Source of the DNA: Cohaesibacter sp.
GTDB lineage: Bacteria; Pseudomonadota; Alphaproteobacteria; Rhizobiales; Cohaesibacteraceae
NCBI GenBank assembly: GCA_025210795.1
Contig: JAOAQZ010000042.1
Coordinates: 1 to 64,000, forward strand
Length of the DNA stretch: 64,000 nucleotides
Direction: 5' to 3'
Both the position numbers and the translations under genes were made by a program. Positions 57,086 through 64,000 of this stretch are shown one piece after another. The notes under the pieces were generated by a model. That model searched no databases, was not told the origin of the DNA, and saw nothing but the letters and a program-made list of their open reading frames with translations. Numbering within the stretch: the first letter of the stretch is position 1; each line of letters starts with the position of its first letter.

Positions 57086-57161
57086 GCGCCCTTCGTCTAG
57101 CGGTCTAGGACGCCGCCCTTTCACGGCGGAAACACGGGTTCGAGTCCCGTAGGGCGTGCCA
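57086..57161 (+). tRNA. tRNA-Glu (anticodon TTC), CCA encoded
   Basis: A full cloverleaf: acceptor GCGCCCT pairs with AGGGCGT (one G-U pair), the D-arm includes TCGTCTAGCGGTCTAGGA, the anticodon stem-loop is CCGCCCTTTCACGGCGG with TTC, the T-arm holds GGGTTCGAGTCCC, and discriminator G is followed by CCA (57159-57161). A terminator follows at once. Beyond it the accessory, decayed region begins. Confidence 0.96.
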
Positions 57162-57653: not shown

Positions 57654-58717
57654 TTACTTAACTGGCACCTCCATAACAAGGCGCGATCTGCTGATCGATT
57701 TTGGTAGTGGTGGGAAGGGGGCAGCACGACGTATGGTTAGCTGAGCTTCCCGATCAACGCGCTTGTTGCCGGAAGAGCGAGTGATGCGAATGCCGGATAC
57801 GGACCCTGAGGAATGGATGGTGAAAACCACGATTGCGCTGCGTTTTGCACGTGCCACAATGGTTCGCTTCTTGCGCACAATGCGTGCCCGAACGCGCCCT
57901 TTGTAATTGCTCAGGGCAGCACGTCCATTTGCATTGGCTTTTTTGCCGCCGCTGCCGCCAGTGGCACCTTTCCGGCCCTTACGGTTTTTAACCTTGCCTC
58001 CCTTGCGCGACGCTTGAGACGCGGCCCGTGCTGCTCTTGATTTGGATGTGCGCGCCTGTTTCTTTGCAGCTTTCTTCTTTTTCGTAACTGTTTTTGCCTT
58101 CTTCTTGCGCTTGATTGGCTTTTTTGTGGCGACGCGTTTTTTAGGCGGCTTTTTGACAATCTTAGCCTGCTTTTTTAGGGCGTTGGCTGAATTTCCTTTT
58201 TGGCGCTTTCGGCCATTGCCTCAGGTTTTAGATAGTCGGGTTTGATCAGGGCCTGCTTGGCTTTGAGTAGCCGAGCATTGTTTGCTGCCAGCGCTTTGAA
58301 CGGTGCCGGTGAGGGAGCAGGGATACGCCTTGCTTCAATAAGGCGTGGCTTGACACGCTCTTCAACAAAGCTCTTGGTCTCAATCGCATGCTGGACCTTT
58401 CTCGGCTCCAGCATGGCCTTGTGTGTAGATTTGCTTTGAAGTGGGGTCGCTTTGACGGCCTGTGAAGCTGAGGCATCAAACAGATTGCCAATTTCAAGCG
58501 AGGCAACTCCTGCGCCGCGCTCTTCCAGAGCCGCATCTGGAGCGGACATGAAGAAGGCTGCCACACTGATATGCGCCACAAGGGAAAGACAGGCGAAAAT
58601 CAGCAATCCTTTGCCAAAAACGCCCAGCCAATGTGAGCTGCGCCCATATATGATTATGAGAGAGGAGGCCACTCTTCTGCCATTGATTAAGAATGGGTAG
58701 AAGGATGGCTTGCGCAT
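57654..58717 (-). pseudogene. tonB: TonB protein, split by one frameshift
   Basis: Energy-transducing TonB of a heme or siderophore uptake system. The N-terminal frame (58717 to a stop at 58175) has one membrane helix (VFGKGLLIFACLSLVAHISV) and a Pro/Ala/Lys linker. The C-terminal frame, read continuously to a stop at 57654, has the Lys-rich linker, then LSNYKGRVRARIVRKK, FTIHSSGSVSGIRITRSSG and DREAQLTIRRAAPFPPLP, the classical TonB C-terminal domain. The two parts are joined by a -1 shift, most simply at the AAAAAGG run (plus-strand 58195-58201), where the protein would read ...ESAKKGNSANALKKQ. ATG 58717 lies inside hutW; a GTG shortly downstream may be the real start. It could be a true pseudogene, a frameshifted functional gene, or a sequencing slip in the homopolymer. 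Confidence 0.82.
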
Positions 58718-59787
58718 CAATTCCTCGTGTTGCAAGCTCATTTGCCAATTGGTGAATATGAAGATGCCCAACTTCCATTTGACCCTTGGCTATATTCAGG
58801 AACTCTCGATCAGCGGGTGAACGCATCATGAAACCAAGTGGTTTTTTGCCAGCCTCGACAGATGTCAAATAGCGCTCAAGATTGCCGTCGTTACGAAAAG
58901 AGTGGTTGTCAAGAAAGCCGCCAGCCCCTGAGCCAAAGGCAAGGCAATTGGCCCCGGTCTTGACCATCAGATTGTAGAGGTTGCGCTCTCGGGTGCCGCG
59001 GCGCCAGTGGGTGGTAGAAAGAGTGCTCCACCCATAATTGGCGAGAATGTTAGCGCCAGCTTGGTAATAGTGACCCACTCGACATCGCGCTCCCAGCTTT
59101 TAAGGCTCTGCTCTGGTAAGCCATACATCAAATCAATGACAATTGCCCCTTGATCAAGGGCCACAAGATCCCTCAAAAATGCTTGGGCCTGATCCCCATC
59201 CACTTTGCGCCCGAGACGTTTGCGCAGTTTTGTTTCAAAGGTCTGTACGCCAATGGAAATGCGGTTGGCTCCGGTAGCAAAGCAGGCTTTGGCCTTTTCC
59301 AGGGGGAAGCTGAAAATCCGCCCTTCAATTGTTATTTCGCAGTCAGAAGCAAGGGGCAGATAGTGCCGAACTGCTTCAATAATGCGGCATAGATCAGTGC
59401 TTTCGAGAGCCGTTGGCGTGCCGCCTCCGAAATAAACCGCATGAATGGGCCCGCTGGCTTGTAAGGGGCTGTCTTTTTCAGCTTTGATTTCCTTGATCAT
59501 CGCATCGGCATAGGACGCACTATGGTTGGTGTGCCAAGGATTTTGGTAAAAGCCGCAAAACAGGCAATGATTTTCGCAAAAGGGGATATGAAGATAGGCA
59601 ACAGATTTTCCCGTGCGCGCAGTAGAGCCAATGATCTGCCACGTTTCCTGATGGTCTTCCTGACGCACTGGCTGGGCCGCCAAGAAGGGATGGACTAGTC
59701 CCTTTTCAGGAATGCATGCTCAAGAGGACTCTCAGTATCAGCTGCAAAAAAGTCTTCAAGGCGCAGTGGGGACGCACTGCCTCCCAT
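58494..59787 (-). pseudogene. hutW: HutW/ChuW-type radical SAM heme-utilisation protein, broken
   Basis: HutW/ChuW are radical SAM enzymes of anaerobic heme degradation. Three pieces in different frames match one protein. Piece 1 (from ATG 59787) reads LRLEDFFAADTESPLEHAFLKR. A -1 shift at an AAAAGGG run near 59705 leads to piece 2 (to about 59050), with the cluster motif CENHCLFCGFY, YFGGGTPT, RISIGVQTF and LMYGLPEQSLKSWERD. The next 40-50 residues of the family are missing. Piece 3 (to 58494) resumes at YYQAGANILANYGWSTLSTTHW with RGTRERNLYNLMVKTGANCLAFGSGAGG and LTLAGRFW. An internal deletion with frame change, plus the 5' frameshift, make function very unlikely. Its 3' end overlaps the tonB start by about 100-220 bases. 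Confidence 0.83.
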
Positions 59788-60745: not shown

Positions 60746-60770
60746 ATTCTAAGAAGTCGAGGGGCGTAAA

Positions 60771-63700
60771 ATGTCATACGGGGAGCAAGGGAAAAAATCG
60801 GAATTATCGTCTCTGGTTCGCTCAAAAATTGAGAATCTTCGACCTAAGCTCTTGGATCTCAGTCGAAGAAATCCCCTTCTTTCCACCCGTTTTTCGACCC
60901 GATCCAGTGGCATTCTCCGGGTGGTCGATGAGGTTCCTGGAAATCTCTACGATGATTTGGCGTCGGGCCAGACGATGCGGTTTGTTCCCCTTCCACCTTT
61001 AGAAGACGATCCCAAGGACGAAAGGACACGAGAGTTCCAGTTGGCTTACGCAGAGGCCAAGCTTACGGACGAGACCTATCAAATATTCCTTGGGAAAATA
61101 GACCATAATGCAACAAACCACGCAGAGGAGATATTCCGAGCCGAACGGGAGTTGAAGGATCGGGTTCGCGAAGCCCTGAACATGCCCGCCCGCCAGACTA
61201 AGAATGATCTTTCCTTAAGCCAGCATGCGCTGAATAATGGGATCTCGCCGTCATATGAGTTGCCATTACCAGGCAGCGAACACGAGGATGGTCGTCACAC
61301 CGACAGCGACATACAGACGTTGTTGCTTCCCGACGCACTGGAAACCCGCATGGGTTCCCTTATGACCAAGTGCCGGACTTGGGTACAGGAAACAGGGATA
61401 AATGTCCTGTATGTGGCATTTGGATTTCTCGAATGGACTGAGGCCGGGACGTCAAAGGTGTCCTATTCTCCTCTTGTCCTGCTCCCGGTTGAGTTGGAAC
61501 GAAAGAAAACACAGGACGGTCTGGAATATTCCATCCGGACCACTGGCGACGGAGCCGAGACCAATTCGGTTCTTGCAGAAAAATTGCGGTTGGACTTCGG
61601 CATTGAGATCCCGCAAATGCACGGAAGTACAATAGAGGACTATATCTGCGAGATAGCGGAACTGTCACCGAATAGCCTTAGCTGGAAGATCCGTCGGCAG
61701 GTTGCACTGGGAGCGTTCCCTTCGTCCCGCATGGCGATGTATTATGACCTGGAAACAGCCGCTGGCAACTATGATACGCACGAAGTGATTGGCGAACTGT
61801 TTGGGGGCACGCCTGTTTTGGCTGGGGCATCCCCGTTCGGCGAGGAATATGAGGTAGATTCGCCTGATATTGAAAAGAAGGTTCCCTTCTTGGTCAGTGA
61901 TGCAGATTCATCGCAGTTTAGCACGATCGTAGATGTGCTTGATGGCAAGAACCTGGCAGTCGAGGGACCTCCGGGTTCGGGTAAGTCGCAAACCATCGTG
62001 AACACAGTTGCCGCAGCATTGGCAAATGGCCAGAAGGTTCTTTTCGTCGCTGAAAAAATGGCCGCGCTTGACGTCGTGAAATCTCGCCTCGAAGCGGTCG
62101 GGCTCGGCGAGTTCATTTTGTCGTTGCAGGCGAGTAAGTCGACGAAAGAACAGGTTATTTCCTCTCTTCGCGACCGGGTCGAGATGGAGATTTCGGGCGT
62201 CAATGCAGGATACGACAAGAAGGTCGCTGATTTTCGCAAGGCACGGGACGAGATATCTGAATATATCGAAGTGATTTCCTCTCCGTACAAGAAGACGGGA
62301 ATGACAGTTTTCGAGATACTCGGGAAATCGATTGCAACGAACAAGGTACTGCATGAGTTGCAAAGGCAGATGCAGACGGCGACCTTTAGGCATGTTGAGG
62401 ACTTCACCCCCGAGAAATTCGAAGAGATCAGAGAGATCTGTCAGCAGATTGAGAACTCTTGGGGGGAGGTAAGTGCTGCAGGTGGTTACTGGAAAGGAAC
62501 CAAGGTCAGGGATCTCAACCCGTTCAATACCGACGAAATTCTGGATGGGGCGCGATATGCCTCGGAGATTTACGGCAAGTTGGCGGACGTCAGCCGGGCA
62601 TTGTCTGGCTATGGTATTTGCGAAAATTCCGAAATGGAACAGTTGGCGCTGGTGAAGGCGGCGCTTGATCAGGATCAGGAGACCGTTTCCAAAATCGATT
62701 GGCCGTTTCTCACAAAGGCATTGGATTTAGAATGTTTCGGTCGGGTTAGATCATTTTTAGCTCAGTGCGATGAGGTGAGGGCGCGGATAAAAGAAGCGGA
62801 AGAAGATGTTACCGAGCCACTTGATCCTTCCCGGCCTCAGCAGTTGAAAATACTGGCAAAGAAGGCAGAACAGATTTCCCTTCCGGGCCTCTCACCCGAC
62901 CAGATCAGTATGGTGAGGCAACAGAATGCAAACAATAAGGAGACATATGAGAGGGTATGCAGGATTATTGCTCCGATTGCGTCGGTATATTCTTCCTGCA
63001 AGGGTTGGACACTCGCATCCGTTTTGAAGGCGTGTGATATCGTGTCCAGTGTCGGTAGCGAGACATTGTCTCTACGCGATCAGAAACTGGCTGATCCTGC
63101 CTTTAAGGTTATATTGAATAACTGCGCTGGCCGTATACGAGATCTACGTGCGAGGCGTGAAGCCCTCGAACAAGAATTCCTGCTGGACGGCTTGCCGTCC
63201 TATTCCGAGATCATTGACCATGCAATGGTGCTTGAAACTGCTGGAGCATTCTCCTTCCTCTCGTCCGATTTTAAACGTTCAAAACGGTTTTACCTGTCCA
63301 AGGCAAAGGGGAGTAGTTTCGATAAATCCGCAGCATCTACCGGATTGTCAAGGCTTGCTGCCTGGGTCAAGGGCAAGGAAGAGTTGGAAAGGGATCCGCA
63401 ACTCATTGCCCTTCTGGGGGTTCGGTTCAACGGATTGGATTCCGATTTCTCAGGGATTGCAAATGTCCTTAATTTTTATCACCGCATTGATGATGAGTTG
63501 CCCGGTATTGAGAATATTGACCTCAGGAATTTCTTGAAATTTGCAGATGCGGATTTGGTGACTTCCTTGCGGAATGGCCGGGTAGATGGTGAAAGCAACT
63601 CACAATTGGATTGTACCTATGGGGAAGTGCAGGAGATCCTCGAACATATACGGCAAGAAGAGTCGGTCTTTGAGGAAATCGTCCAAGAAATTGAGAGCCT

Positions 63701-64000
63701 GACTTCGGTCTTGAAAAACAGATCCAGTGCCAACGTGGATTGGCTGCGACAATGCGCTGAAGAACTTGCGGAGATCCAGGTCGTCGTGGATGTACTCTCG
63801 CAGGACGATGCGGCAAAAACTATCCTTGGCGATCATTTTAAGGGGCATAATACGGACAGGCGGGTGGTCGGCGCGGAGATGGATATCGCGGAGCATGTCT
63901 CTCAATTGGAGCTGAAAAATCGAGAAGCTGTGCTTTTGTCGTTCGAGAAAGGCAATCATGCCGATCTAAAAGAGGCTTTGCAAAAGCGTTGCCAGCTTGA
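60771..64000 (+). CDS. DUF4011-type P-loop ATPase/helicase, N-terminal 1076 codons
   Basis: The frame is open without a stop to the right edge, so the gene is incomplete. Start ATG 60771 has GAGGGG 7 bases upstream. The N-terminus (LRPKLLDLSRRNPLLSTRF) is the DUF4011 signature. A superfamily 1-like Walker A lies at G399 (GPPGSGKS to S406), followed by LFVAEKMAALDVV, the motif Ia region. A long helical insertion of about 600 residues follows, so Walker B and the remaining helicase motifs should lie beyond the window. Full-length members are 1500-2000 residues, often ending in a DUF559/Vsr-type nuclease, and several such DUF4011-helicase-nuclease proteins are anti-phage (the system called Hhe, as I recall it). 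Located next to decayed genes, as expected for a defence island. Confidence 0.8.
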   Translation, partial: MSYGEQGKKSELSSLVRSKIENLRPKLLDLSRRNPLLSTRFSTRSSGILRVVDEVPGNLYDDLASGQTMRFVPLPPLEDDPKDERTREFQLAYAEAKLTDETYQIFLGKIDHNATNHAEEIFRAERELKDRVREALNMPARQTKNDLSLSQHALNNGISPSYELPLPGSEHEDGRHTDSDIQTLLLPDALETRMGSLMTKCRTWVQETGINVLYVAFGFLEWTEAGTSKVSYSPLVLLPVELERKKTQDGLEYSIRTTGDGAETNSVLAEKLRLDFGIEIPQMHGSTIEDYICEIAELSPNSLSWKIRRQVALGAFPSSRMAMYYDLETAAGNYDTHEVIGELFGGTPVLAGASPFGEEYEVDSPDIEKKVPFLVSDADSSQFSTIVDVLDGKNLAVEGPPGSGKSQTIVNTVAAALANGQKVLFVAEKMAALDVVKSRLEAVGLGEFILSLQASKSTKEQVISSLRDRVEMEISGVNAGYDKKVADFRKARDEISEYIEVISSPYKKTGMTVFEILGKSIATNKVLHELQRQMQTATFRHVEDFTPEKFEEIREICQQIENSWGEVSAAGGYWKGTKVRDLNPFNTDEILDGARYASEIYGKLADVSRALSGYGICENSEMEQLALVKAALDQDQETVSKIDWPFLTKALDLECFGRVRSFLAQCDEVRARIKEAEEDVTEPLDPSRPQQLKILAKKAEQISLPGLSPDQISMVRQQNANNKETYERVCRIIAPIASVYSSCKGWTLASVLKACDIVSSVGSETLSLRDQKLADPAFKVILNNCAGRIRDLRARREALEQEFLLDGLPSYSEIIDHAMVLETAGAFSFLSSDFKRSKRFYLSKAKGSSFDKSAASTGLSRLAAWVKGKEELERDPQLIALLGVRFNGLDSDFSGIANVLNFYHRIDDELPGIENIDLRNFLKFADADLVTSLRNGRVDGESNSQLDCTYGEVQEILEHIRQEESVFEEIVQEIESLTSVLKNRSSANVDWLRQCAEELAEIQVVVDVLSQDDAAKTILGDHFKGHNTDRRVVGAEMDIAEHVSQLELKNREAVLLSFEKGNHADLKEALQKRCQL

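What the first reader, a model, noticed from the sequence alone, without database searches (positions are those of the whole stretch)
60771..64000. Large DUF4011-type ATPase at the edge of a decayed region: likely defence gene
A frame of at least 1076 codons begins with the DUF4011 motif and has a Walker A (GPPGSGKS). It follows three broken genes beyond a tRNA-Glu, the kind of setting where defence islands occur. Gene content to the right cannot be seen and could include partner genes or a novel arrangement.
Basis: partly seen in the sequence, partly recalled or inferred. Interest (0 to 1): 0.62.

Follow-up and report, generated by a model that had tools for sequence, protein, structure and literature searches.

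The report
Likely defence enzyme with Gre-like tail
This is a complete gene for a large helicase-nuclease of a family linked to phage defence, and it ends in a domain resembling the part of the GreA transcription factor that grips RNA polymerase, which suggests, untested, that the enzyme works at transcribing polymerases.

Summary
The frame cut by the window edge is complete in the genome: 1869 codons (contig 60771-66380), with DUF4011, intact SF1 helicase motifs and an MTES_1575 nuclease. It follows a tRNA-Glu and broken heme-uptake genes (hutW, tonB). The right flank is metabolic, without partner genes, but single-gene relatives (Hhe, ProA) are named anti-phage proteins by NCBIfam, so a lone gene does not refute defence. 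It passes neither Hhe's nor ProA's curated cutoff; its best PADLOC match is the candidate PDC-S37.

New here: the last ~75 residues form a GreA/GreB/Rnk-type globular domain. By Pfam 35 of 85 relatives' tails carry it, and an AlphaFold model of a relative's tail matches Gfh1 and GreA at Z 10.5-11.8. In one relative (Akkermansia MAG), inside a clade of mostly Gre-tailed proteins, the same place holds a DksA module. Gre and DksA globular domains share a published partner, the beta-prime rim helices of RNA polymerase. Best reading: a defence helicase-nuclease that docks on RNA polymerase. Docking and defence are both untested by experiment. No paper found in the searched library describes this tail.

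The parts
60771..64000 (+). helicase-nuclease gene, residues 1-1076 of 1869; continues in the contig to 66380 (nuclease at residues 1590-1686 and Gre-like tail at about 1795-1864 lie beyond the window)
60846..61586 (+). DUF4011 domain, residues 26-272
   Evidence: Pfam PF13195, E 5.2e-38
61965..61988 (+). Walker A GPPGSGKS, residues 399-406
60759..60764 (+). GAGGGG, possible ribosome-binding site 6 bases before the ATG
   Evidence: read from the sequence
57086..57161 (+). tRNA-Glu(ttc), synteny breakpoint in the genus and integrase neighbour in 2 of 4 sister genomes inspected
58494..59683 (-). hutW (radical SAM, heme degradation) broken by a frameshift; setting only
   Evidence: NCBIfam TIGR04107 in two frames
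57657..57878 (-). TonB C-terminal fragment; setting only
   Evidence: Pfam TonB_2 4.9e-11

Best explanation
A single-protein anti-phage or anti-mobile-DNA enzyme. Shown by sequence and fold: an N-terminal DUF4011 domain, a split SF1 helicase motor with intact motifs, a C-terminal PD-(D/E)xK-type (MTES_1575) nuclease, a linker and a Gre/Rnk-type globular domain at the very end. Inferred: the Gre-like tail binds the beta-prime rim helices at the mouth of the RNA polymerase secondary channel, so the enzyme is held on RNA polymerase. From there the motor probes or loads on DNA at a stalled, phage-modified or heavily transcribing polymerase, and the nuclease cuts it. In other lineages the same slot is filled by DksA, DUF3320, an Hhe-type tail, or nothing, which suggests an exchangeable targeting module on a common helicase-nuclease engine.
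For: Intact motifs. Family with named anti-phage members Hhe (1260.8 bits) and ProA (989.9 bits), and PADLOC candidate PDC-S37 (1108.5 bits). Gre-like tail: 35 of 85 tails match Pfam GreA_GreB, best 1.1e-16; a profile of 32 such tails finds GreA 1grj at 1.9e-9 and Rnk 3bmb at 6.3e-8; AlphaFold model of the L060 tail, pLDDT 80.9, matches Gfh1 Z 11.8, GreA Z 10.5, GreB 7.9, Rnk 7.0 and HelD 6.6; the window tail hits the tail profile at 7.7e-20. dN/dS of the tail 0.05-0.09 in three pairs of relatives. DksA module in the same slot in L107, inside a 13-row clade with 9 Gre tails. Published: globular domains of Gre factors and DksA bind the beta-prime rim helices (PMC7527559 passage); [quoted passage not shown] Patchy occurrence: 40 of 249 genomes of the order at E <= 1e-30, all subfamilies counted. 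Relatives on 354 plasmid records of which 212 predicted conjugative. Defence genes near Gre/DksA-tailed relatives, 0 of 34 control ORFs.
Against: The window protein's own Gre match stays below the Pfam cutoff (18.7 to 24.9 bits against 26.9). The Gre coiled coil is not seen, and both GreA domains are reported to be required for specific RNAP binding (PMC7527559 passage). The DksA swap is a single MAG protein; no second one among the listed matches of 384 genomes. No defence gene next to the window gene. A DUF4011 protein is a core flanking gene in all P. aeruginosa isolates of one study (PMC10250203 passage), so not all family members are accessory. Many relatives lack the tail (27 of 115 loci counted as none). 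The tail matches FKBP-type folds too, at lower Z.
Confidence: 0.48

Rival explanations
1. A defence helicase-nuclease as above, but the Gre-like tail does not bind RNA polymerase. It is an FKBP-like domain used for self-inhibition, oligomerisation, nucleic-acid binding or sensing of a phage protein.
For: FKBP-like folds also match the model (Z about 6). Tails are freely exchanged with DUF3320, Hhe-type or none, none of which I can tie to RNAP. GreA needs both domains for specific binding.
Against: Gre, Gfh1 and GreA stand clearly above the FKBP rows (Z 10.5-11.8 against about 6). The DksA swap in L107 points to RNAP, the partner that Gre and DksA share.
Confidence: 0.24
2. Not defence: a genome-maintenance factor that clears or processes stalled transcription complexes, comparable to HelD or Mfd, with a nuclease.
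For: HelD is an SF1-type ATPase anchored in the RNAP secondary channel (PMC8655204 passages), and the tail has a weak fold match to it. A DUF4011 protein is core in P. aeruginosa.
Against: Patchy presence in the genus and order, plasmid and viral-contig copies, tRNA-bordered variable locus, defence neighbours of relatives, and named anti-phage relatives.
Confidence: 0.15
3. A decaying remnant: a former island gene that is still open but no longer expressed or useful, like hutW and tonB beside it.
For: Neighbouring hutW and tonB are broken; no integrase or att repeat was found beside the gene.
Against: 1869 codons without a stop, all motifs intact, and a plausible ribosome-binding site.
Confidence: 0.08

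Closest known systems
PDC-S37 (PADLOC candidate defence protein PDLC05009)
   Same: best PADLOC match, 1108.5 bits over three stretches
   Different: a candidate without tested function; whether its last 180 profile positions (beyond 1370 of 1550) are Gre-like could not be checked
Hhe (NCBIfam NF042953)
   Same: DUF4011, SF1 helicase and MTES-type nuclease core, 1260.8 bits over residues 142-1743
   Different: cutoff of 2000 bits not met; the plasmid Hhe matches listed end at query residue 1676-1718, before the Gre-like tail
ProA (NCBIfam NF058533)
   Same: shared core, 989.9 bits
   Different: cutoff of 1500 bits not met
GreA, GreB, Gfh1 and Rnk
   Same: C-terminal globular domain fold (Z 7.0-11.8) and profile match
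   Different: no Gre coiled-coil domain seen; the domain is a small tail on a helicase-nuclease
HelD
   Same: SF1-type ATPase that anchors in the RNAP secondary channel (PMC8655204 passages); weak fold match of the tail (Z 6.6)
   Different: HelD's arm is at its N-terminus and I read of no nuclease; not a DUF4011 protein as far as tested here

Membership tests
DUF4011-SF1-MTES helicase-nucleases | DUF4011 domain over Pfam cutoff | tested here: met
   131 bits, cutoff 22.2
DUF4011-SF1-MTES helicase-nucleases | SF1 helicase domains with Walker A and Walker B | tested here: met
   AAA_11 58.4 bits and AAA_12 49.7 bits, cutoffs 27; GPPGSGKS and IIDEAS
DUF4011-SF1-MTES helicase-nucleases | MTES_1575 nuclease domain with acidic residues conserved | tested here: met
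   123 bits, cutoff 38.2; E1591, D1617, E1634 and D1636 invariant in 7 proteins
Hhe | NCBIfam NF042953 curated cutoff 2000 bits | tested here: not met
   1260.8 bits
ProA | NCBIfam NF058533 curated cutoff 1500 bits | tested here: not met
   989.9 bits
PDC-S37 | PADLOC model match | tested here: inconclusive
   1108.5 bits, E 0, best of the library, but no curated cutoff is shown
Gre factors (GreA/GreB/Gfh1/Rnk) | GreA_GreB C-terminal domain by Pfam cutoff in the window protein | tested here: not met
   18.7 bits whole protein, 23.1 tail alone, 24.9 in the genome search, cutoff 26.9
Gre factors (GreA/GreB/Gfh1/Rnk) | fold of the C-terminal globular domain | tested here: met
   on the tail of relative L060, not on the window's own tail: Z 11.8 Gfh1, 10.5 GreA
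Gre factors (GreA/GreB/Gfh1/Rnk) | N-terminal coiled-coil domain | tested here: not met
   no Pfam family other than GreA_GreB C-term in the tail at E 0.01, none in the whole protein at 0.05
RNA polymerase secondary-channel binders | binding to the beta-prime rim helices | not testable with these tools
   needs a pull-down, two-hybrid or structure
Anti-phage defence protein | protection against phage | not testable with these tools
   needs phage challenge
HelD | HelD sequence signature and clamp arm | not tested
   only the fold of the Gre-like tail was compared

The most novel reading that the evidence does not exclude
A class of transcription-coupled immune nucleases: DUF4011 helicase-nucleases that have repeatedly gained or lost RNA polymerase secondary-channel domains (Gre-type, and once a captured host-like DksA), so that they ride on RNA polymerase and attack the DNA it transcribes when phage takes over or stalls transcription.
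Probability: 0.42. Interest if true: 0.8.

Novelty: new variant of a known kind. Interest (0 to 1): 0.56.

Why it matters
The papers I saw do not say how the large DUF4011 defence proteins choose their DNA target. A polymerase-docking tail, with DksA in the same slot in one relative, gives a concrete and testable answer: guidance by transcription. It would fit a recent hint that transcription factors matter for immunity, since DRT3 defence needs host GreA (PMC13174585 passages).

Tried and rejected
Partner genes to the right: none in the ORFs put to PADLOC (three flank ORFs beside the gene itself) or to Pfam (six flank ORFs). Element ends: the last 12 to 39 bases of tRNA-Glu have no second exact copy in contig 1-117000, so no element boundaries are claimed. 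Phages: 1 of 50,697 records, without annotation. Viral contigs: 3 relatives, of which L190 has a Gre-like tail and L188 and L189 the Hhe type. L107 as an assembly chimera with a dksA locus: not supported, because its downstream ORFs match none of six free dksA loci, whose stored DNA reaches only about 1.5 kb past dksA. Further DksA fusions: 384 genomes of L107's class were searched; among the listed matches only L107 joins DksA to the nuclease (some matches were not listed). DUF4011 fold: confident model (pLDDT 89.5) but best Foldseek E 0.14 and best VIA Z 4.4; a faint overlap with a DUF4297-HerA complex (Z 2.7) was not pursued. Defence neighbours: 133 of the 170 ORFs within 5 kb (231 ORFs in all; 27 of 29 loci) were scanned; ORFs over 1400 aa were dropped and the list was then cut by a residue limit; the scan gives counts by family only, 100 families matched and 25 were shown. 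The control was 34 of 36 window ORFs. The excess is suggestive, not a statistic. The tail census is biased, since relatives were found with a Gre-tailed query. 'None' means a tail under 60 residues (27 of 115 loci); one of these, L056, has its Gre domain in another frame. L006 and L024 give the same tails and match figures as L060 and L073; I took them for duplicates and left them out of the tree. Loci L001, L003-L005 and L011-L023 were not in the census. The tree is the quick kind without bootstrap. In the dN/dS test two of three pairs have nearly saturated synonymous sites.

Full report
What is there. The open frame at 60771 is complete in the genome. The window is G000:C21:1-64000; the frame ends at contig 66380 after 1869 codons. 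Pfam finds DUF4011 at residues 26-272, an SF1 helicase in two parts (P-loop near residue 400, AAA_11 end at 1281-1323, AAA_12 at 1344-1544, so about 880 residues lie between Walker A and Walker B), and an MTES_1575 nuclease at 1590-1686 (E 5.4e-36). Helicase and nuclease motifs are intact and invariant in seven full-length proteins.

Setting. In the sister genomes inspected (four), recJ, a MarR/GNAT gene and tRNA-Glu are shared with the window; to the right of the tRNA no window ORF is found, and in two of the four an integrase lies beside the tRNA. In the window the space between tRNA and gene holds broken heme-uptake genes: hutW in two frames and a TonB C-terminal fragment. The right flank is HupE/UreJ, an unknown ORF, an APH-M23-aminotransferase fusion, a tetrapyrrole methylase and a molybdopterin oxidoreductase. 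The first three of these have no PADLOC match. No att repeat was found.

Which family. NCBIfam gives Hhe_antiphage 1260.8 bits (cutoff 2000) and antiphage_ProA 989.9 (cutoff 1500); PADLOC gives PDC-S37 1108.5 and Hhe 861.3. It belongs to the superfamily that includes named anti-phage proteins, but is neither Hhe nor ProA by the curated tests. Occurrence is patchy: 40 of 249 genomes of the order have a match at E <= 1e-30, all subfamilies counted. Among the 20 genomes of the family search only the window's genome and G019 have a match that covers both core and tail. Relatives occur on 354 of 72,556 plasmid records, 212 of them predicted conjugative; a Rhizobium plasmid hit (H1) covers residues 11-1860 and so reaches through the tail.

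The tail. The last 75 or so residues are the unexpected part. The window protein alone only hints at GreA_GreB (18.7 to 24.9 bits, cutoff 26.9). The family settles it: of 85 tails of at least 60 residues taken after the nuclease, 35 match GreA_GreB (best 1.1e-16), 23 DUF3320, 1 a DksA/TraR zinc finger and 1 a topoisomerase zinc ribbon. A profile of 32 Gre-like tails finds GreA, Gfh1 and Rnk in the PDB at 1.9e-9 to 6.3e-8. The AlphaFold model of one tail (L060, from a Cohaesibacteraceae MAG; pLDDT 80.9) matches Gfh1 at Z 11.8 and E. coli GreA at Z 10.5, well above the FKBP rows at about 6. The window tail scores E 7.7e-20 against a profile built from 26 relatives' tails without it. In three close pairs of relatives the tail has dN/dS 0.05-0.09, against 0.11-0.18 for the whole protein; synonymous sites are near saturation in two pairs, so these are rough.

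Tail exchange. On a tree of 112 cores (around residues 1179-1690, quick method) the Gre label needs 16 changes, at least 10 of them forced by well-supported branches. The tail behaves as an exchangeable module; the Legionella relatives nearest to the window protein by path have none. In one protein, L107 from an Akkermansia MAG, the slot holds a DksA-like module of about 150 residues with the zinc finger, 72% identical to a free DksA in the same genome. It lies inside a 13-row clade with 9 Gre tails and 3 counted as none. Its downstream ORFs differ from those of free dksA loci and include weak matches to a DnaG-type zinc ribbon and a helix-turn-helix. Among the listed matches of 384 genomes of its class no second DksA fusion appeared.

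How it probably works. [quoted passage not shown] HelD is a published case of an SF1-type motor that anchors itself in that channel (PMC8655204). The shared partner of the two tail types is therefore RNA polymerase, and docking is the simplest reading. This is inference: the GreA paper also says that both GreA domains seem required for specific binding, and the DksA swap is a single case. That the enzyme defends against phage is inferred from family, patchiness, mobility and neighbours of relatives (IetA, IetS, restriction genes and others, against 0 of 34 control ORFs).

What is known. No paper found in the library describes a Gre- or DksA-type tail on DUF4011 proteins. Searches: DUF4011+phage, DUF4011+GreA (where the word start also matches 'great'; one of its three papers was not opened), Hhe+anti-phage+helicase (21), PDC-S37 (22), GreA+anti-phage+helicase+nuclease+RNA polymerase (44), DksA/GreA/fusion/antiphage/nuclease (55), PF01272+phage (78), HelD/GreA/Hhe and others (79). 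Domain databases may show the architecture; no tool here lists architectures. Papers were seen as passages only: PMC10250203, PMC6589727, PMC7527559, PMC13174585, PMC12908700, PMC8655204, PMC9239242, PMC10274647; others only as search listings.

Verdict. A real, intact, probably defensive helicase-nuclease of a known superfamily, a new variant by its Gre-like tail. The core is ordinary, the tail is interesting, and the function is unproven.

Noticed in passing
window 57654-59683 (-): Remains of a heme-uptake locus: hutW split by a frameshift and a TonB C-terminal fragment in another frame, just beyond tRNA-Glu.
   Followed up: partly
L107:7032-13601: Akkermansia MAG DUF4011 helicase-nuclease ending in a DksA-like module 72% identical to a free DksA of the same genome: apparent capture of a host transcription factor.
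   Followed up: partly
L087:7410-7871: A relative whose tail is a topoisomerase-type C4 zinc ribbon, a further tail type in the same slot.
   Followed up: no
window 60771-61895, residues 1-375: The DUF4011 region folds with high confidence (pLDDT 89.5) but has no clear PDB match by Foldseek or VIA; its fold is unassigned.
   Followed up: partly
L190:397-5988: A Gre-tailed relative on a 44-kb contig of the viral collection, at its edge.
   Followed up: no
L152:2319-3344, L154:12050-13225: Phage-type integrases beside tRNA-Glu in two sister genomes: this tRNA is an integration site in the genus.
   Followed up: partly
L156:9211-10734: In sister genome G002 the homologue of the window gene's right neighbour (HupE/UreJ) lies elsewhere, next to a tRNA-Arg.
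   Followed up: no
L073:13014-13985: A Devosia relative (46% identical core) carries both a Gre-like domain and a DUF3320-type domain in its tail (L024 is taken as the same protein).
   Followed up: no
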